Positions 179 through 7,146 of a stretch of DNA of 7,545 nucleotides are shown here, one piece after another. The DNA is from an uncultured Clostridia bacterium (lineage in GTDB: Bacteria > Bacillota > Clostridia > Oscillospirales > Ruminococcaceae). Under the pieces are notes generated by a model that saw only the letters and a program-made list of their open reading frames with translations, ran no database searches and was not told where the DNA came from. The stretch lies in assembly GCA_947302065.1 (NCBI GenBank), contig CAMYUO010000080.1, positions 1 through 7,545 on the forward strand, in the 5' to 3' direction. The first letter of the stretch is position 1, and each line of letters opens with the position of its first letter. Made by a program: the position numbers and the translations under genes.

Positions 179-207
179 AAAACGGACTTGAAAACCAAGT
201 CCGTTTT
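179..207. terminator. Bidirectional rho-independent terminator
   Basis: A perfect 12-bp inverted repeat (AAAACGGACTTG / CAAGTCCGTTTT) encloses a 5-base loop. It lies between the convergent stops at 172 and 212. Read on the minus strand it is followed by a run of T (complement of 175-182), so it is strongest for the lipoprotein transcript. On the plus strand the right arm itself supplies TTTT and it should also stop the partial gene. Confidence 0.9.
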
Positions 208-871: not shown

Positions 872-1480
872 TCAATCCATTGCGTTCTTGATAGTCTCAT
901 AAAGCTCATCATATGTCTCATACGCAGGGATATCAGGGTTGTCAGCCTTGATGTTGTCAGGGCTTTTGAACAGGAAGCCTGCCTTGCTTGCCTTGATCAT
1001 GCCAAGGTCGTTGTGGCTGTCGCCCGATGCGATAGTCTCATAACCGATAGACTGAAGCGCCTTGACGGTCGTGTACTTGGACTTTTCAACTCTCATCTTA
1101 TAGCCTGTGATCTCGCCGTTGTCTGCAACCTCAAGAGTATTGCAGAAGATAGTCGGCATACCCAGCTTTTTCATCAGAGGCTTTGCGAACTGAGTGAATG
1201 TGTCGCTGATGATGATGACCTGTGAAAGATCACGGAGCTTGTCAAGAAACTCCTTTGCACCTTCCATAGGCTCTATCTTTGCGATAGTTTCCTGTATCTC
1301 CTTGAGTCCGAGTCCGTGCTCTTTGAGTATCGCAAGGCGGTACTTCATAAGCTTGTCGTAATCAGGCTCGTCACGGGTGGTCTTGCGAAGCTCGGGGATA
1401 CCGCTTGCCTCGGCAAAAGCGATCCATATCTCTGGAACGAGAACTCCCTCAAGGTCAAGACATGTGATATACATTGACAT
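872..1480 (-). CDS. thrH: ThrH-like phosphoserine phosphatase / homoserine phosphotransferase (HAD superfamily)
   Basis: The protein has 202 residues, the usual ThrH length. HAD motif I is CLDLEGVLVPE, with nucleophile Asp9 and acid Glu11; motif II is ISDTF, with Ser92; motif IV is GDSHND at 153-158. The LEGVLVPEIWIAFAE and TTRDEPDYDKLM stretches are the specific ThrH signature as I recall it from the Pseudomonas protein. That enzyme hydrolyses phosphoserine to serine and can move the phosphate to homoserine, which links serine and threonine synthesis; whether this copy has the second activity is not shown. The start at 1480 follows GGAGGAA (1488-1494) at normal spacing. A TTG at 1495 overlaps that ribosome site and is rejected; ATG at 1474 is a less likely alternative. 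The gene has its own promoter and terminator. No serine or threonine pathway genes are next to it. It is likely cytosolic. Confidence 0.88.
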   Translation of the reverse strand: MSMYITCLDLEGVLVPEIWIAFAEASGIPELRKTTRDEPDYDKLMKYRLAILKEHGLGLKEIQETIAKIEPMEGAKEFLDKLRDLSQVIIISDTFTQFAKPLMKKLGMPTIFCNTLEVADNGEITGYKMRVEKSKYTTVKALQSIGYETIASGDSHNDLGMIKASKAGFLFKSPDNIKADNPDIPAYETYDELYETIKNAMD

Positions 1481-1561: not shown

Positions 1562-2929
1562 CTATTGAACCGTCGGGTCGCATACCGTGCCGATGAACAC
1601 GGGCACGCCCAGCTCGGTGTCCATTATCGCAAACACGAACGGTCTGTCAAGGTGAACGGTCTTTGGATCTTCCTTTTGCATAGCCATATTTCTATTGGTC
1701 ACTGCCGTTGCGGCTGCTGCCTTTGTGCCCTGTGCATCAAGCTCGATGTGCGTCTTGTGCAGGACCCTGTCGATCTTCATTTGCGCATTTTCAAACATAT
1801 TAGAAAAATCGGCACCTGCTGAAAAAGCATCGCTCATGCCCATATTTTTCAGAGTATTTCCCAGCTCGGTGTTGTAATCGAACTTGAACTGCGGCAGCTT
1901 TGCATAAACATCAACGTTTTGCTTTCTGCTCGCATACAGCTCGCTCAGCTCGTCAAAATCAAGCGCTGACACGAAATCACCGATAGATTTATCCTCATTC
2001 GGCAGCACAGCCATAAATGAATACTTGCCGTTGTAGCGCTTGACGAAGCCTGTCGCACTGCCGTTCTCGATGTAGTCTGATTCAACGCTTTCAAGCATCG
2101 TACACTTGACCTCTTCGCCCTTGGCATTTGTGAATTTTTCGTTCTGCTTTATCTGATCTTCCTCGTATGGTTTGATCCACTTTGCATCAAACGCAGCGCA
2201 GTTGAGCAGGCACGATGCCTCATTGCCCTCAAAACCGTCGATGATGCTTGGGATCATACCGTTGGTCTTTTGGCTGACCCAGTTGTTTATGTCTGCGGCA
2301 GTCTTATCGTTGAACTCCGACCTGAAAACAGACGCATTGTACATCTCCTTGCACGCCTTTGCGAACTGCTGTGTCGGCGTGATGCCGCCCTTGTTGTTTA
2401 CCCACACGGCATTGGCAAAATCAAGCCTGCTGTTCTCGCTTTGCAGAGTGAGCGACCTGCTCATCCAGCGCTTCATGTTCTCGTTGAACTTGTCCGTGTC
2501 AACACCCTTGCACAGAACGTTCTGCATCTGTTCAAGAGTCTTTCCGCCTGCGCCGTTCTCTGTCATGCCCAGTGCAAAAGCCACCGATGCGGGCGAAACG
2601 AGCGTGTTCTTTTCGCCGTTTGAAAGGTCGCCCTTAACGGTATTCTTGAAAAGCTCTGTCGAAAAACCGCCGATGCCCTTGATGAATTCGGCATCATATG
2701 TCTTACTGTGGTCATTTGGCATCGGTGTGAACTGCAGATCACTTGTAAGATCTATAACATCGCCCTGCGGCACAGGGTCGGGCTTGATCGGCACATCAGG
2801 CTCTGTCGGCTCAGCAAATGACGAATCGGGCTGACCGGGCGACGGCTCCGACGAGCTGCTGTGCGAACACGAACACATACCCATTACCAGCGAAACAGCT
2901 ATAACCGCACTCAAGATTCTCTTTAACAT
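1562..2929 (-). CDS. Lipoprotein serpin 1 (serine protease inhibitor, predicted P1 Met)
   Basis: The protein has 455 residues: signal peptide 1-18, the Cys-Ser-Cys lipid-attachment region at 19-21 and a Ser/Pro/Asp-rich linker to about 75. A complete serpin domain follows, near 80-455. Family marks are NTLVSPASVAFALGMTENGA (109-128), WVSQKTNGMIPSII (217-230), LLNCAAFDAKW (241-251), LPQFKFDYN (345-353) and HKTHIEL (391-397). The hinge is GTKAAAATAV (401-410), with Thr at P14 and a run of Ala, the form seen in inhibitory serpins. By canonical spacing P1-P1' is Met415-Ala416; Arg413 (P3) is a nearby basic alternative. P17 is Ala rather than the usual Glu. Serpins trap serine or cysteine proteases covalently after loop cleavage. 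Here that would happen outside the membrane. The start at 2929 is set by AGGGAG nine bases upstream and by alignment with the two paralogues; the ATG at 2938 touches the ribosome site. No T-tailed terminator is seen after the stop. Confidence 0.95.
   Translation of the reverse strand: MLKRILSAVIAVSLVMGMCSCSHSSSSEPSPGQPDSSFAEPTEPDVPIKPDPVPQGDVIDLTSDLQFTPMPNDHSKTYDAEFIKGIGGFSTELFKNTVKGDLSNGEKNTLVSPASVAFALGMTENGAGGKTLEQMQNVLCKGVDTDKFNENMKRWMSRSLTLQSENSRLDFANAVWVNNKGGITPTQQFAKACKEMYNASVFRSEFNDKTAADINNWVSQKTNGMIPSIIDGFEGNEASCLLNCAAFDAKWIKPYEEDQIKQNEKFTNAKGEEVKCTMLESVESDYIENGSATGFVKRYNGKYSFMAVLPNEDKSIGDFVSALDFDELSELYASRKQNVDVYAKLPQFKFDYNTELGNTLKNMGMSDAFSAGADFSNMFENAQMKIDRVLHKTHIELDAQGTKAAAATAVTNRNMAMQKEDPKTVHLDRPFVFAIMDTELGVPVFIGTVCDPTVQ
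1637..1729 (-). other. Reactive-centre loop of serpin 1
   Basis: This segment encodes residues 401-431, from P15 Gly to the Phe of the DRPF motif. P1 Met415 is at 1685-1687 and P1' Ala416 at 1682-1684. Sixteen residues run from P1' through the Phe, against twelve in human alpha-1-antitrypsin as I recall it, so the primed side is four longer. Met at P1 is associated with elastase-like or chymotrypsin-like targets; the target is inference. Confidence 0.7.
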
Positions 2930-2972
2930 AAAAAACATCTCCCTGTCTTTTTTCTGTGTTTTGCCTACATCA

Positions 2973-3051
2973 GATATACGGACAAGGAGATGATTTTTTA
3001 TTGGTATATCATGCACAAATCAGTGCTTGTTTTTTGTCGATTATTTTGTGC
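2973..3051 (-). promoter_or_regulatory. Conserved serpin upstream module, copy 1
   Basis: Read on the minus strand the order is TTTGTGCA (3012-3019), 10 bp, ATAAAA (2996-3001), 17 bp, TATATC (2973-2978), with TGTCCG just before the last block. The start codon of serpin 1 is 43 bases further on. The last two blocks have -35/-10 geometry, but ATAAAA is not a consensus -35, so activator dependence or another sigma factor is possible. A second GCACAAAA arm (3044-3051) overlaps the last codons of serpin 2 and is inverted relative to TTTGTGCA. Confidence 0.65.
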
Positions 3052-4417
3052 TCGGGTCGCAGACAGTTCCCATAAATACAGGCAGTCCTGTTTCGGTATC
3101 GACTATTGCATATGCAAAGGCTCTGTTGATATCGACTACCTTTGCTTTTTCATCCATCGGCGATATACCCATAACATCCATCTTAACAGATGTGGCAGCT
3201 GCCGCCTTTGTGCCGTCTTCATCGAGCTGGATATGTGTCTTGTGAAGCACCTCGCTGATAAACAGCTGCTGCGTCTCGCTCATTGCAGAGAAATCAGCCG
3301 ACTCGGGATCAAAAGCATCTGTTATGCCCATCTGCTTGAGAGTGTCGTTGAGAGCTGCGCTGTAATCATATGTGAACTTGGGAAGATGCGCATAGACTTT
3401 GTACTCGTCCGTCCTGCCTGCATAAAGCTTTGCAAACTTTTCAGCGGTCATCGACTTTACGTAATCCGCAAGGCTCACGCCTTCGTTCGGCAATATAGCC
3501 ATGAACGCAAACTTTCCGCCCTTGTATTTCTTGATAAAGCCCTGTGAGTCCTCATCGCTGATATACAGGTTTTCCTCAGAGTACATTTTCTCGCAGGTCG
3601 TTTTGCTGCCGTCGGGACGGGTGAACTCAGCATTTTTCCTGACATCATCGGTCGTATACTTATGCTCCCACTCTGCCTCAAAAGCTATGCAGTTGAGCAG
3701 AACAGCCGCCGTGGTATCATCAAGCGAATCTATTATGCTAGGAATCATCTGGGTGGTCTTTTCATTTACCCAGCCGTTCATCTGCTGTGCGGTGCTGTCG
3801 TCAAAAGGTGCTTTGAACATATCGGCATTGTAAAGCTCCTTGCAGTTCTTTGCAAACTGCTCTGTGAGGGTCATGTTTGAGTTGTCCCTTACCCATACCG
3901 AATTTGCGATGCTGAACTTGAACTCGCTGTTGTTCTGTGCAGATGTCATCAGCTTGTTCATGTTCCTGTTGAAAGTCTCTATGTCCATATCCTTGCACAG
4001 CACTTTCAGCATCTGTTTGAGCGTTTCGCCCTTTGCGCCGTTTGCAGTCATCCCCAGCGCAAAAAGCACCGACTCGGCTGAAACGAGTGTATTGTTTCCA
4101 TTTTCCAGGTCAGCTTTCACAGCGTTTTTGAAAAACTCTACCGAGAACTCATTTGTACCGATAAGGAACTGTTCGTCGCTGCTGATCTTGCTGTCGGCAG
4201 CCGGTAAGAACTGATACTGCGAGGTAGGTGATACGATATCCTCGCTCGGTGTGAAAGACCCGTTATTAGGTGTTTCCGGTTCTGTCTTTGTAGGCGGGAG
4301 CGAATTGACAACGCTGCTGTTTTTGTTGTCCCCAGTGCTTGAACTTTCAGAGCATGAGCACATCATACCCAATACCAGTGTCATTGCTACCACTGCACTT
4401 AAAATCTTCTTAAACAT
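3041..4417 (-). CDS. Lipoprotein serpin 2 (serine protease inhibitor, predicted P1 Met, long loop)
   Basis: The protein has 458 residues: signal peptide ending GMMCSC (Cys20 or Cys22 lipidated), an Asn/Ser/Thr/Pro linker to about 80, then a full serpin domain. Marks are LVSAESVLFALGMTANGAKG (111-130), WVNEKTTQMIPSIID (216-230), LLNCIAFEAEW (240-250), LPKFTYDYS (345-353) and HKTHIQL (392-398). The hinge GTKAAAATSV (402-411) has Glu at P17 and Thr at P14, as in inhibitory serpins. Canonical spacing puts P1-P1' at Met416-Gly417. Two normally firm serpin positions are changed: the Pro of the N-terminal Ser-Pro motif is Ala, and the Pro of the RPF motif after the loop is Ala (NRAF). The start at 4417 follows AGGAG and matches the signal peptides of the paralogues. 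Its own upstream module and the serpin 3 terminator point to separate initiation. No T-tailed terminator is visible before serpin 1, so readthrough into it is possible. Confidence 0.95.
   Translation of the reverse strand: MFKKILSAVVAMTLVLGMMCSCSESSSTGDNKNSSVVNSLPPTKTEPETPNNGSFTPSEDIVSPTSQYQFLPAADSKISSDEQFLIGTNEFSVEFFKNAVKADLENGNNTLVSAESVLFALGMTANGAKGETLKQMLKVLCKDMDIETFNRNMNKLMTSAQNNSEFKFSIANSVWVRDNSNMTLTEQFAKNCKELYNADMFKAPFDDSTAQQMNGWVNEKTTQMIPSIIDSLDDTTAAVLLNCIAFEAEWEHKYTTDDVRKNAEFTRPDGSKTTCEKMYSEENLYISDEDSQGFIKKYKGGKFAFMAILPNEGVSLADYVKSMTAEKFAKLYAGRTDEYKVYAHLPKFTYDYSAALNDTLKQMGITDAFDPESADFSAMSETQQLFISEVLHKTHIQLDEDGTKAAAATSVKMDVMGISPMDEKAKVVDINRAFAYAIVDTETGLPVFMGTVCDPSTK
3116..3214 (-). other. 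Reactive-centre loop of serpin 2
   Basis: This segment encodes residues 402-434, from P15 Gly to the Phe of NRAF. P1 Met416 is at 3170-3172 and P1' Gly417 at 3167-3169. Eighteen residues run from P1' through the Phe, the longest primed side of the three. After the shared Ala run the sequence (KMDVMGISPMDEKAK) has little in common with the other two loops. Confidence 0.7.
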
Positions 4418-4464
4418 AATAACATCTCCTCATTTTGTTTTTTATATGTTTTTTGCTTACATCA

Positions 4465-4532
4465 GATATACGAACAGGGAGAAGTGATTTTATTGGTGCA
4501 CTATGCATAAATGCGAAGCAATATTTTGTGCA
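4465..4532 (-). promoter_or_regulatory. Conserved serpin upstream module, copy 2
   Basis: On the minus strand: TTTATGCA (4504-4511), 10 bp, ATAAAA (4488-4493), 17 bp, TATATC (4465-4470), with TGTTCG just before the last block and TGATGTAAGC after it. The start codon of serpin 2 is 47 bases on. An inverted TGCACAAAA arm lies at 4524-4532. It follows a strong terminator, which supports a promoter role. Confidence 0.7.
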
Positions 4533-4555
4533 TTTTGCCATCGGGAATTGCTCAT

Positions 4556-4584
4556 AAAAAAGTCCCCGTCACAATGGCGGGGAC
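4556..4584 (-). terminator. Terminator of serpin 3
   Basis: On the minus strand GTCCCCG and CGGGGAC form a 7-bp GC-rich stem around a 9-base loop, followed by TTTTTT (4556-4561). It begins 15 bases after the serpin 3 stop and isolates that gene from serpin 2. Confidence 0.92.
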
Positions 4585-4599
4585 ATACAGCAACAAATA

Positions 4600-5916
4600 T
4601 CAGTTGACGCTCGGATCGCAGACTGTGCCCATGAATACAGGCAGTCCCGACTCGTTGTCCATTATCGCGTAAACGAAAGGTCTGTCAAGAATGACCTCTT
4701 TGCGTGCTGATATCGCGCCCTTTGCCCGCACCTCAACAGCCGTTGCAGCGGCAGCCTTTGTGCCGTTCGCGCCAAGCTCGATGTGTGTCTTGTGCAGCAC
4801 CTTGCCGATGTATGTCTCGGTGTTCTCTATCAGCTTTGAGAAATCCGCCGCATTTGAGAACGCCTGTGTCATACCCATCTTTTTAAGGCTCTCCGAAAGC
4901 TCAAGACTATGATCGTACTTGAACTCGGGCATCTTTGTAACGACCTCGTCTTCAGTGCGGTCGTTGTAAAGCTTTGCAAACTCGTCTGCCGTCATTGAGG
5001 AAACATAGTCCTTGACATCTGTGCCCTCATTCGGCAGGATAGCCATAAATGCGTACTTGCCGCCCTTATAATTCTTGATAAAACCCTGTGCTCTATCGTC
5101 TGAGATATAGATGTTCTCCTTGCTCGAAAGCATCGTGCAATTGACCTTATCACCCTTTTCATTGGTGAATGTCTCGTTTTCCTCGACCTGCTCCTCCTCG
5201 TACTTATCTGCCCACTCGGAATCGAAAGCCACGCAGTTTATAAGGTACATCACGTCATTTTCGTCAAACTTGTCAATTATATTCGGAATCATCTTATCGG
5301 TCTTTTCGTTTACCCAGCTGTTGACCTGCTTTACCGTCTCGTCATCGAAAGCGCCCTTGAAAAGCTCTGCATCGTAAAGCTCCTTGCAGGTCTTTGTGAA
5401 CTGCTGCGTCGGGGTGATATCATTTCTGTCCCTTACCCAGACGGAGTTTGCGATATTCAGCTTGCACTTTTCATTGTTGAACGCCTTTGCCATTGACATT
5501 ATGCGGTTCATATTCTTGTTGAACGTTTCCTGGTCAACGTCTTTGTAAAGCACCTTCTGCAGCTCCTTGAGCGTATTGCCGTCTGCACCGTTCTGAGTCA
5601 TTCCGAGAGCGAATGCAACGGACTCGGGCGAAACGAGCGTGTTCATTCCGGTGCCGAGGTCGTTTTTGACCGACGCCTTGAAAAGCTCGACCGAAAAGCT
5701 GTTCATACCGCTGACGAACTTTTCATCGAGAGGGTCTGTGCTCTCGTTCTTTACGAATGCGTAGTCGGCTGTCGGTGTGACCGCAGGCTCGACTGCAGGT
5801 GTCTGCGATGCCGTGCCAAGCGACGAAGCCGGCTCAGTTGCGCTGCTCTCCGAACACGAACACATTCCCATTACCATTGTTATTGCGATGACCGCACTGA
5901 TTATCTTTTTAAACAT
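4600..5916 (-). CDS. Lipoprotein serpin 3 (serine protease inhibitor, predicted P1 Lys)
   Basis: The protein has 438 residues, the shortest of the three because of a shorter Ala/Pro/Thr linker (about 22-60). The signal peptide ends MGMCSC (Cys19 or Cys21 lipidated). The serpin domain is complete: NTLVSPESVAFALGMTQNGA (92-111), WVNEKTDKMIPNIID (201-215), LINCVAFDSEW (225-235), MPEFKYDHS (329-337) and HKTHIEL (375-381). The hinge is GTKAAAATAV (385-394). Canonical spacing puts P1-P1' at Lys399-Gly400, with Arg397 at P3, so trypsin-like targets are predicted, unlike the two Met paralogues. P17 is Ala rather than Glu. The start at 5916 follows AAGGAG eight bases upstream. It is preceded by its own copy of the upstream module and followed by a strong terminator, so it looks like a single-gene transcript. 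Confidence 0.95.
   Translation of the reverse strand: MFKKIISAVIAITMVMGMCSCSESSATEPASSLGTASQTPAVEPAVTPTADYAFVKNESTDPLDEKFVSGMNSFSVELFKASVKNDLGTGMNTLVSPESVAFALGMTQNGADGNTLKELQKVLYKDVDQETFNKNMNRIMSMAKAFNNEKCKLNIANSVWVRDRNDITPTQQFTKTCKELYDAELFKGAFDDETVKQVNSWVNEKTDKMIPNIIDKFDENDVMYLINCVAFDSEWADKYEEEQVEENETFTNEKGDKVNCTMLSSKENIYISDDRAQGFIKNYKGGKYAFMAILPNEGTDVKDYVSSMTADEFAKLYNDRTEDEVVTKMPEFKYDHSLELSESLKKMGMTQAFSNAADFSKLIENTETYIGKVLHKTHIELGANGTKAAAATAVEVRAKGAISARKEVILDRPFVYAIMDNESGLPVFMGTVCDPSVN
4675..4764 (-). other. Reactive-centre loop of serpin 3
   Basis: This segment encodes residues 385-414, from P15 Gly to the Phe of DRPF. P1 Lys399 is at 4720-4722 and P1' Gly400 at 4717-4719. Fifteen residues run from P1' through the Phe, the shortest of the three loops. 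It carries Arg at P3 and P6' as other basic cleavage candidates. Confidence 0.7.
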
Positions 5917-5959
5917 ATCTCCCACTCCTTGAAATTCGTATTTCAACGTTCTTACACTG

Positions 5960-6028
5960 AATATACGAACATTCCGCCATATTTTTATGGTGATATCCTG
6001 CACAAATCAGCCTTAACGTTTTTGTGCA
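5960..6028 (-). promoter_or_regulatory. Conserved serpin upstream module, copy 3
   Basis: On the minus strand: TTTGTGCA (5999-6006), 10 bp, ATAAAA (5983-5988), 17 bp, TATATT (5960-5965), with TGTTCG before the last block. The serpin 3 start codon is 43 bases on. The spacer bases are largely different from copies 1 and 2 while the block distances are the same, so the blocks themselves appear to be under selection. Confidence 0.68.
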
Positions 6029-6033: not shown

Positions 6034-7095
6034 CTACCCTGGCACACAATACAGATTTGTCTCCCAGCAGGGATAATACCTCGATTGGCGCAGATAGAAC
6101 TTATAATCGGCGTTTATCCTGCAAAGCATCAGCGGCAGCAGGAAATAATCATAAGGCTTGTGATAAAGTGCGGCGCATATCTTCGGCGTGTATTTTCTGA
6201 TAGTCTGCACACTGCCGAGCAGAGCCTCATAGTCCGCACCCTCAACATCGTATTTCACATAAGTGCAGCCGTCCTGCGCAATGCTGTCGAGCGTCAAAGC
6301 TCGTACCTGCGTACCCTTGTCGGATATCTTTGCCTGTCTGCCTGCGCCCTTTGAAAATATCAGCTCGGTGTTCTCGCTCCACGCCGCAGCGTTATACAAA
6401 GTTACATTTTCAAGGCTCTGCGTGTTCAGCTCACATTTGCGGAAATTCTTTTCATTCGGCTCAACACCGACAATGCGCTTGTACTTTCCGCCGACAAGCC
6501 TTACGAACTCCTCAATCGTGTCGCCTCGGTATGCGCCGAGGTCAAAATATTCCTCACTGTCTGTCAGCCCGAGCAGACTCTTCGCCTCACTCTCATCACA
6601 AAAACACTCACGCAGATATTTCGTGCTGCCCGTTATCTTGAACGCCGTCACACACTCGAATGTCTTTCGTGACAGCTCGTCTTCGAGCAGGCTGTAAGCT
6701 CTCTCCGCCTTATTATAAAGGTCTAAGAATCTTTCCTTGTCAAAATAGCCTTCGTCAGTCACAGATGTGTCGGGCGCAAGCAGTTCAAACCTGTCCTCGA
6801 TACTCTCTATCCTTGACATTATCTCGTCAAGACTGCTGCCGAAACCGAGTACGATGAGCTTGTCTCTGCTGTCGTTCATCACGTCGGAGAATCTCTGCAC
6901 TTTATATCCGCAAAAGCTCTGTCCCCTGACAAAATCATCGCTTGCAAATATACCGTCACATCTTATCCCGAAACGGTCAAACAAACGCAGTATCTTTTCG
7001 CTGCCGTTGCCCATACCGTATATATAAACCGGCTTGCCGCAGTTCGCTATCCTGTCCCAGCAGCTCGACAGCCCTTCAAAATAACTCTTATCCAT
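6034..7095 (-). CDS. FkbM-family SAM-dependent methyltransferase with N-terminal Rossmann-like segment
   Basis: The protein has 353 residues. Residues 20-110 look like a nucleotide-binding or sugar-modifying Rossmann-type segment (VYIYGMGNGSEKIL at 23-36, then GIFASDDFVRG and LIVLGFGSS). Residues 180-353 are an FkbM (Methyltransf_21) domain: SAM motif FDLGAYRGDT (184-193), acidic loop VEPNEKN (211-217) and YVKYDVEGADYEALLG (279-294). Family members O-methylate sugars or other hydroxyls, often on surface glycans or secondary metabolites; the substrate here cannot be read. No signal peptide, so cytosolic. The start at 7095 follows GGAGG (7102-7106). An in-frame ATG at 7143 would translate through a terminator hairpin and is rejected. 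It is 54 bases from the upstream PH-domain gene; the hairpin between them lies against the ribosome site. No glycosyltransferase is adjacent in the window. Confidence 0.88.
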   Translation of the reverse strand: MDKSYFEGLSSCWDRIANCGKPVYIYGMGNGSEKILRLFDRFGIRCDGIFASDDFVRGQSFCGYKVQRFSDVMNDSRDKLIVLGFGSSLDEIMSRIESIEDRFELLAPDTSVTDEGYFDKERFLDLYNKAERAYSLLEDELSRKTFECVTAFKITGSTKYLRECFCDESEAKSLLGLTDSEEYFDLGAYRGDTIEEFVRLVGGKYKRIVGVEPNEKNFRKCELNTQSLENVTLYNAAAWSENTELIFSKGAGRQAKISDKGTQVRALTLDSIAQDGCTYVKYDVEGADYEALLGSVQTIRKYTPKICAALYHKPYDYFLLPLMLCRINADYKFYLRQSRYYPCWETNLYCVPG

Positions 7096-7106
7096 AAAAA
7101 GCCTCC

Positions 7107-7134
7107 AAAAAAGGACGGAAAAACCTTTCCGCCC
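7107..7134 (-). terminator. Terminator-like hairpin against the FkbM ribosome site
   Basis: On the minus strand GGGCGGAAA and TTTCCGTCC (one G-U pair) enclose a 4-base loop and run into TTTTTT (7107-7112), which touches the GGAGG of the FkbM gene. It fits a terminator for the PH-domain gene, 15 bases after its stop. Its position also makes it a possible attenuator in an FkbM leader. Confidence 0.85.
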
Positions 7135-7146
7135 TTTGATCATCAG

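What the first reader, a model, noticed from the sequence alone, without database searches (positions are those of the whole stretch)
1562..5916. Tandem array of three surface-anchored serpins with diversified reactive-centre loops
Seen: three full-length serpins in a row share signal peptide, hinge (GTKAAAAT), HKTHI and the C-terminal GTVCDP, yet diverge from about P7 onward and differ in loop length (16, 18 and 15 residues from P1' through the Phe after the loop). Known: the loop sets protease specificity, and serpins of the gut species Eubacterium siraeum inhibit human neutrophil proteases. Inference: duplication followed by loop diversification gave a cell-surface panel of inhibitors against several host, dietary or competitor proteases. 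Lipid anchoring would keep them at the cell rather than released.
Basis: partly seen in the sequence, partly recalled or inferred. Interest (0 to 1): 0.72.

Follow-up and report, generated by a model that had tools for sequence, protein, structure and literature searches.

The report
Sigma-controlled serpin trio in Ruminococcus
Three neighbouring genes in a Ruminococcus bacterium encode serpin-type protease inhibitors, predicted to be anchored at the cell envelope, and each gene is preceded by the same promoter-like DNA element that also precedes a stress-type sigma-factor gene across the genus, so the trio is likely switched on by that sigma factor.

Summary
Observation confirmed: three full-length serpins (S1 4600-5916, S2 3041-4417, S3 1562-2929, minus strand) share signal, hinge and C-terminus but differ in loop sequence and length. 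The MAG belongs to the genus of Ruminococcus albus, not to Eubacterium siraeum. The array sits at one conserved locus (bPH_2-FkbM-serpin x1-3-ThrH) and holds three old paralogue clades. Lipid anchoring is supported by a conserved MCSC lipobox, MAAC in one relative. Ongoing loop diversification is not supported at the specificity positions: P5-P2' evolve at ordinary scaffold rates, the fastest sites lie at P3' and beyond; two close pairs do show loop bursts. The new part is regulatory. Each window serpin carries TTTGTGN5TNNCNCNANAAA-N16-CGTATAT, found upstream of 25 of 31 genus serpins scanned (reversed pattern 0 of 31) and of an orthologous ECF sigma gene in 28 of 28 genomes that have it (25 by pattern, 3 with a 15-nt spacer by reading). 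The serpins are therefore likely an ECF-sigma regulon. In S3 and 10 related leaders the promoter spacer is complementary to the Shine-Dalgarno; the predicted hairpin would form only in read-through RNA, as in phage T4 gene e. S1 and S2 lack a strong version. Nothing is tested at the bench.

The parts
4600..5916 (-). S1 (clade A): predicted lipoprotein serpin, loop AVEVRAKGAISARKE, P1 Lys by usual register
   Evidence: Pfam PF00079 3e-87; clade A SH-aLRT 98
3041..4417 (-). S2 (clade D): predicted lipoprotein serpin, loop SVKMDVMGISPMDEKAK, P1 Met by usual register
   Evidence: Pfam PF00079 6.4e-85; clade D SH-aLRT 94
1562..2929 (-). S3 (clade N): predicted lipoprotein serpin, loop AVTNRNMAMQKEDPK, P1 Met by usual register
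   Evidence: Pfam PF00079 1.5e-83; clade N SH-aLRT 93
5950..6006 (-). Promoter-like element of S1 (TTTGTG...CATAAA-N16-CGTATAT); CGTATAT at 5961-5967
   Evidence: pattern hits, (2 mismatches; 0 mismatches)
4455..4511 (-). Promoter-like element of S2; CGTATAT at 4466-4472
   Evidence: pattern hits, (3 mismatches; 2 mismatches)
2963..3019 (-). Promoter-like element of S3; -35-like CAATAAA at 2997-3003, CGTATAT at 2974-2980
   Evidence: pattern hits, (2 mismatches; 1 mismatch)
2981..2992 (-). 5' arm (CATCTCCTTGTC) of the predicted S3 leader hairpin, inside the N16 promoter spacer
   Evidence: RNA folding, (z -5.2)
2936..2947 (-). 3' arm (GACAGGGAGATG) of the predicted S3 hairpin; contains the Shine-Dalgarno
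   Evidence: probability unpaired 0.00
4556..4584 (-). Intrinsic terminator after S1 (7-bp stem, 9-nt loop, T6); none found between S2 and S3
   Evidence: loop one base too long for the scan
6034..7143 (-). FkbM-family methyltransferase, conserved upstream neighbour
   Evidence: PF05050, TIGR01444; synteny
872..1480 (-). ThrH-type phosphoserine phosphatase/homoserine phosphotransferase, conserved downstream neighbour
   Evidence: TIGR02137 4e-77; synteny

Best explanation
The window holds a tandem array of three serpin genes that encode predicted lipoproteins, and the three are likely transcribed as members of an ECF-sigma-factor regulon from a promoter-like element that lies upstream of each gene. 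Shown by calls: the array, its single conserved locus, three paralogue clades, the shared element, and the same element in front of an orthologous ECF sigma gene across the genus. Inferred: a membrane signal frees the sigma factor from the protein encoded next to it (a putative anti-sigma with one hydrophobic segment), RNA polymerase starts a few bases after CGTATAT, and the serpins are exported, lipid-anchored and trap serine (or cysteine) proteases by loop cleavage and insertion. For S3 a further step is predicted: the promoter spacer is an anti-Shine-Dalgarno, so RNA that reads through from S2 would fold the ribosome site shut, while RNA started at S3's own promoter would lack the 5' arm and be translated. 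S1 ends in a terminator, which would spare S2 such read-through; S2, which precedes S3, has none.
For: Serpin identity: Pfam E 3e-87 to 1.5e-83; nearest solved relative of S1 is tengpin, E 6e-91; hinge columns slow (mean rate 0.10). Lipoprotein: MCSC in 20 of 21 array genes, MAAC in G009_1. Element: 57-nt form, 23 hits in 14 of 29 genus genomes, 0 reversed-pattern hits; 46-nt form, 109 hits in 29 of 29 genomes against 21 reversed hits, my sums of the printed columns. Upstream of serpins: 25 of 31 scanned, reversed control 0 of 31; of the 5 serpins not in that scan, 4 have it and one was not examined. Upstream of the ECF gene: 28 of 29 genomes have the orthologue at E 1.1e-53 or better (all but the 76%-complete G019); 25 of these 28 have the element at spacer 16 and G000, G028, G007 show it with spacer 15 by reading. 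ECF domains: Sigma70_r2 and r4, TIGR02937 for the window genome's own copy. A CGTC motif in the -10 region is called common for ECF promoters (PMC3397946, passages); here it is CGTA. Hairpin: 11 of 11 leaders of the clade-N/single-copy type (counting G010_1 of clade D) fold with z -4.7 to -7.5, and own arms pair better than swapped arms in all but 0.00025 of 20,000 permutations; spacer-SD z -4.2 to -6.2 in these 11 against 0.5 to -2.4 in 15 ECF promoters.
Against: No transcription start is mapped; if transcription starts upstream of the spacer, the hairpin is in every S3 transcript. The strong hairpin is missing from S1 and weak in S2 (z -2.3 and -0.8), and the seven D-type-plus-S1 leaders give p 0.067 in the arm test, so it is not a feature of the whole array. 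2 of 12 non-serpin lipoprotein promoters also pair spacer and SD, so the feature is not serpin-specific. Arm permutations ignore relatedness. Six of 31 serpins lack the element in the scan, among them three third-position A genes. The ECF gene lies on another contig, and 11 ECF-like matches exist in the MAG, so another sigma factor could use the element. The putative anti-sigma has no Pfam hit in the two relatives tested. -35 and -10 roles are assigned by position only. An outer half-site could mean a transcription factor instead.
Confidence: 0.62

Rival explanations
1. One reading: duplication followed by selected loop diversification gave a cell-surface panel that tracks several host, dietary or competitor proteases.
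For: Three paralogue clades with different loops and loop lengths at one locus; two close pairs with a loop burst, 1.5%/24% and 2.7%/28% scaffold/loop difference; very fast columns at P3' and beyond.
Against: P5-P2' columns are no faster than typical scaffold columns; of 25 pairs with at most 15% scaffold difference, the 8 above 5% have loop means of 0.029 (6 pairs) and 0 (2 pairs); S1 and P0002 share the whole loop at 13% scaffold difference; loop dN exceeds dS in one of four usable DNA pairs, plus one pair with dS zero.
Confidence: 0.2
2. The S3-type hairpin is a regulated leader of the gene's own transcript (riboswitch, thermosensor or protein-bound leader), with the start site just after CAATAAA.
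For: Hairpin z -4.7 to -7.5 and better own-arm pairing; the inner stem also pairs better with its own partner, p 0.009 in the N-type group.
Against: CGTATAT and its distance to CAATAAA or CCATAAA are kept in ECF and lipoprotein promoters most of which have no anti-SD, so CGTATAT acts as DNA; in 17 of 22 ECF genes a GGG-type SD follows within about 16 nt of CGTATAT, which fits a start just after it; no Rfam family reaches its gathering score in the window.
Confidence: 0.25
3. The shared element is the site of a transcription factor rather than an ECF promoter, and the serpins mainly protect the cell's own envelope and secreted fibre-degrading enzymes from self or neighbour proteases.
For: A dockerin-borne serpin of R. 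flavefaciens was proposed to protect the cellulosome (PMC5301203, passages); an outer half-site ([CT]A[CT]AAA or CACAA) precedes the element in 14 of 18 serpin, 14 of 22 ECF and 10 of 12 lipoprotein promoters, 0 for reversed windows.
Against: None of the three carries a dockerin hit; the element directly precedes an ECF gene in 28 of 28 genomes that have it, the usual sign of autoregulation.
Confidence: 0.2
4. The array order is an assembly artefact of similar paralogues.
For: Gene order here is A-D-N while G006, G016 and G020 have D-N-A; the MAG has 380 contigs.
Against: Four other genomes carry three-gene arrays at the same locus; clusters with the 97-99% relatives of S1 and S3 share a longest contig of 6571 bases, consistent with one other contig.
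Confidence: 0.05

Closest known systems
Siropins 1 and 2 of Eubacterium siraeum DSM 15702 (PMC5127057; abstract, three results sections and passages seen)
   Same: Gut-bacterial inhibitory serpins with small-residue hinges; Siropin 2 predicted extracellular; cleaved at V-M (Siropin 1) and V-E (Siropin 2). S2 holds V-M and S1 holds V-E in the loop.
Tengpin (PDB 2vh4, 2pee, 2pef) and miropin (PDB 5ncs to 5ncw)
   Same: Same fold family and among the best sequence matches with solved structures for S1 (E 6e-91 and 2e-41); tengpin has a GTKAGAVT hinge.
   Different: Other organisms and loops; synthetic conserpin ranks between the two.
Dockerin-serpins of Ruminococcus flavefaciens and Clostridium thermocellum PinA (PMC5301203, passages)
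   Same: Secreted serpins of fibre degraders, one in Ruminococcus.
   Different: Held by dockerins; the three here have a lipobox and no dockerin hit.
Bifidobacterium breve serpin with its two-component system (PMC8012564, passages)
   Same: Serpin gene under a protease-inducible signal system.
   Different: Two-component system next to the gene, not an ECF sigma factor elsewhere.
Phage T4 gene e, soc, 49 and I-TevI leaders (PMC3014915 and PMC2988022, passages)
   Same: Shine-Dalgarno shut by a helix in long RNA; for I-TevI a promoter placed so that its own transcript lacks the sequence needed for the helix.
   Different: Phage late promoters; here a predicted ECF promoter of a chromosomal gene, untested.

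Membership tests
Serpin (Pfam PF00079, inhibitor family I4) | Full-length serpin domain | tested here: met
   All three over the 27-bit cut-off at 281-294 bits, profile 3-370 or 5-370 of 370
Serpin (Pfam PF00079, inhibitor family I4) | Inhibitory-type hinge (small residues P12-P9, Thr at P14) | tested here: met
   GTKAAAAT in all three; P17 is Glu only in S2, Ala in S1 and S3; the hinge rule is recalled
Serpin (Pfam PF00079, inhibitor family I4) | Covalent protease trapping | not testable with these tools
   needs protein
Bacterial lipoprotein | Signal peptide ending in a lipobox with Cys | tested here: met
   MCSC in S1, S2, S3; MAAC in G009_1; read by eye, no predictor run
Siropin orthologue | Closest relationship to E. 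siraeum siropins | not tested
   siropin sequences not in the text seen and not fetched
ECF-sigma regulon member | Promoter element shared with the ECF operon | tested here: met
ECF-sigma regulon member | Regulator has sigma regions 2 and 4 of ECF type | tested here: met
   PF04542 and PF04545; TIGR02937
ECF-sigma regulon member | Cognate anti-sigma factor | tested here: inconclusive
   next gene has one hydrophobic segment by eye but no Pfam match in the two relatives tested
ECF-sigma regulon member | Transcription depends on the sigma factor | not testable with these tools
   needs a mutant or in vitro transcription
T4 gene e-type promoter-in-hairpin leader | SD paired in long RNA | tested here: met
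   predicted for S3 only (z -5.2, probability unpaired 0.00); S2 weak (z -0.8, 0.18); S1 not met (0.91)
T4 gene e-type promoter-in-hairpin leader | Own transcript starts inside the hairpin | not testable with these tools
   inferred from CGTATAT lying between the arms

The most novel reading that the evidence does not exclude
Each gene of the array is an independently switched unit of an ECF-sigma protease-defence regulon, and in clade-N genes one 16-nt stretch does two jobs: promoter spacer and anti-Shine-Dalgarno. Translation is thereby restricted to RNA started by the stress sigma factor, a chromosomal counterpart of the T4 gene e switch that lets tandem paralogues sit head to tail without terminators.
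Probability: 0.45. Interest if true: 0.7.

Novelty: new variant of a known kind. Interest (0 to 1): 0.55.

Why it matters
Gut-bacterial serpins are discussed mainly as inhibitors aimed at host proteases. A genus-wide ECF-sigma link would recast the Ruminococcus ones as part of an envelope-stress response and names the regulator to remove in an experiment. The predicted double use of a promoter spacer as an anti-ribosome-site arm would be a compact way to insulate tandem paralogues, known from phage T4, and can be tested with one 5'-end map. A search of the held paper library for serpin with extracytoplasmic function and sigma factor gave 4 papers, none of whose titles or abstract openings concerns ECF control of a serpin (one opened by passages). 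Subscription journals are mostly not in that library.

Tried and rejected
Rfam scan of the window: three hits, all far below gathering score; one (mir-955) overlaps the S3 leader on the opposite strand and one (anti-hemB) overlaps the S1 terminator. The first 57-nt pattern had a spacer miscounted by one and found nothing, not even the known sites; corrected. Loop exchange between paralogues: P0044 switches at about residue 300 from G020_1-like (0.92-1.0 per 25 residues) to G020_2-like (0.96-1.0), which fits a crossover or an assembly chimera; P0004 and P0005 pair an A scaffold with an N-like loop; but holding A or D as one clade in the C-terminal tree is not rejected (p-AU 0.455 and 0.419), so loop exchange stays suggestive. 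dN/dS on eight DNA pairs has only 15-18 loop codons each; the closest relatives were available only as proteins. The half-site count was cut off by one base and gave 0; redone. Structure prediction was not run, since the serpin fold is not in doubt. Rows: only P0001-P0057 and P0059 of the homologue lists were used, P0055 (short) was dropped before, 23 near-duplicate rows of 84, and P0044 before the rates. The tree is the quick method. In one search the stretch between G006_2 and G006_3 had length 0 because of the start chosen for G006_3, so it was not examined.
Full report
What is there. The window is contig C80 of a 2.17-Mb, 380-contig, 70%-complete MAG. Three serpin genes lie head to tail on the minus strand, in transcribed order S1 (4600-5916), S2 (3041-4417), S3 (1562-2929). 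No other serpin was found in the MAG. Flanks are an FkbM methyltransferase and a bPH_2 protein upstream, and a ThrH-type phosphatase and a small lipoprotein-like ORF downstream.

Where it comes from. Genomes placed in the same genus include contigs whose lengths match six named records: Ruminococcus sp. FC2018, Ruminococcus sp. UBA3767, RUG060, RUG13226, RUG460 and a MAG from SRR10912540; one same-genus contig of 418,867 bases matches the longest contig of a protein cluster named Ruminococcus albus. RUG means rumen uncultured genome as I recall; no call states a habitat, and the window's own is not known.

Locus history. The same neighbourhood bPH_2-FkbM-serpin(s)-ThrH is found in nine genomes with 1, 2 or 3 serpins: three in G000, G006, G009, G016, G020; two in G004, G010; one in G008, G012. 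A tree without loop columns gives three clades: A with S1, D with S2, N with S3 (SH-aLRT 98, 94, 93; quick method). G009 is D-N-N, and G006, G016 and G020 are D-N-A, but the window is A-D-N. S1 carries its own terminator (4556-4584); of the 20 other array genes, 19 had the following stretch examined and none showed one. The place of A at the front is thus a lineage-specific rearrangement or, less likely, an assembly error.

Loops. S1 and P0002 differ at 13% of scaffold positions and at none in the loop. Of 25 pairs with at most 15% scaffold difference, 17 at or below 5% average 2.3% scaffold and 8.5% loop difference, 6 between 5 and 10% average 7.4% and 2.9%, and 2 between 10 and 15% average 11.9% and 0. 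The largest values in the first bin are two pairs at 24% and 28%. Pairs are not independent. Site rates put P5-P2' at 0.47-1.46 and six columns at P3' and beyond at 3.36-3.47, with scaffold mean 0.99. This looks like an exposed loop with a fairly stable working end, not an arms race at P1. The eight DNA pairs neither add much nor settle it.

Anchoring. 20 of 21 array serpins have MCSC after the hydrophobic stretch; G009_1 has MAAC instead, which points to the second Cys as the lipidated one. Lipidation and surface exposure are inference; the linkers are tens of residues long and may or may not span the wall.

The shared element. Reading upstream of the start codons showed a block at fixed spacing, TTTGTGCANNATNNCNC[AC]ATAAA-N16-CGTATATNNNNTGTAAGC. 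With up to 3 mismatches it gave 23 hits in 14 of 29 genus genomes and no reversed-pattern hits. A shorter form gave 109 hits in 29 of 29 genomes against 21 reversed hits (sums are mine), so some single hits are chance. A scan of 31 serpin loci found it upstream of 25, and the reversed pattern upstream of 0. The 6 without it are the third-position A genes of G006, G016 and G020, G012 (present with a 15-nt spacer by reading), G013 and G007:C44. Of the 36 serpins, 5 were not in that scan; 4 of those have the element and G019:C68 was not examined. In a family-wide sample with up to 2 mismatches, 9 of 148 genomes had it, two of them the only ones of this genus in the sample, while 3 genomes had a reversed-pattern hit.

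The likely regulator. The non-serpin hits include the promoter of an ECF sigma gene. One close orthologue per genome was found in 28 of 29 genomes at E 1.1e-53 or better. 25 of the 28 have the element at spacer 16 just upstream, and the other three, among them the window's own genome (C93:4061-4603), have it with spacer 15 by reading. The next gene encodes a protein with one hydrophobic segment and an N-terminal SPDMDkLW-like motif in the loci read; I take it as a putative anti-sigma factor. ECF operons commonly drive themselves (general knowledge), so the simplest reading is that this sigma factor reads the element. Other candidates under the element are lipoprotein-like ORFs (including G000:C119, no Pfam hit), VWA lipoproteins and ORFs without a Pfam family. 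The signal is unknown. [quoted passage not shown] breve serpin (PMC8012564, passages), so protease damage is a reasonable guess.

The hairpin. In S3 the spacer reads CATCTCCTTGTC and the ribosome site GACAGGGAGATG, a 12-bp match with one G-U. The 11 leaders of the N/single-copy type (G010_1 of clade D among them) fold with z -4.7 to -7.5, and own arms pair better than swapped arms in all but 0.00025 of 20,000 permutations. It does not hold for S1 (z -2.3, SD free) and hardly for S2 (z -0.8); the seven D-type-plus-S1 leaders give p 0.067. Spacer-SD pairing is not seen in 15 of 15 ECF promoters tested (z no lower than -2.4) or 8 of 8 R. albus-type serpin promoters (no lower than -1.4), but is seen in 2 of 12 lipoprotein promoters, and one D-type leader reaches -3.2. 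If the start site follows CGTATAT, the 5' arm is missing from the gene's own RNA, and only read-through RNA from S2, which has no terminator, would be shut. Reviews describe this arrangement for T4 gene e and I-TevI (PMC3014915, PMC2988022, passages). Here it remains a prediction.

Exchange between copies. G010_1 and G010_2, from clades D and N, have the same 46-nt element, which suggests leader conversion. Loop exchange is suggestive only.

Verdict. Ordinary serpins in a real, conserved array; the diversification story is not supported at the specificity positions; the ECF-sigma link is well supported by comparison, and no matching paper came up. New variant of a known kind.

Noticed in passing
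window 1562-5916; L065, L067, L068: Gene order A-D-N in the window against D-N-A in G006, G016, G020; S1 carries a terminator, not found after 19 other array genes examined.
   Followed up: partly
L160 upstream of 204 and L163 upstream of 2974 (minus): Two non-serpin lipoprotein-like genes with the element also have a spacer complementary to their Shine-Dalgarno (z -6.1 and -4.3), possibly an independent origin of the same trick.
   Followed up: partly
L069:6132-6234 and L069:4679-4781: Leaders of two paralogues of different clades in G010 are identical over the 46-nt element.
   Followed up: partly
P0044: Metagenome protein that is G020_1-like to about residue 300 and G020_2-like after it: crossover product or assembly chimera.
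   Followed up: partly
L182 (G000:C119); L129, L130, L133, L135, L139, L140, L142: 378-aa lipoprotein-like ORF without Pfam hit under the same element; similar ORFs in array species, some much longer (513-667 aa).
   Followed up: partly
L179:2288-3100: A TrpB-like ORF (label recalled, no family search run) follows the ECF operon in the window's genome and in several relatives.
   Followed up: no
L076, L077, L081, L158: Lipoprotein ORFs under the element in four same-genus genomes; L076 and L158 have VWA hits, L077 and L081 resemble L076 at the N-terminus only as far as read.
   Followed up: partly
P0098, P0112, P0118, P0125, P0128, P0154, P0194: Serpins of other sources joined to a PF02368 domain in the precomputed Pfam column.
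   Followed up: no
window 179-207 and 836-859: Terminator-like sites on the minus strand after the small lipoprotein-like ORF and after ThrH.
   Followed up: no
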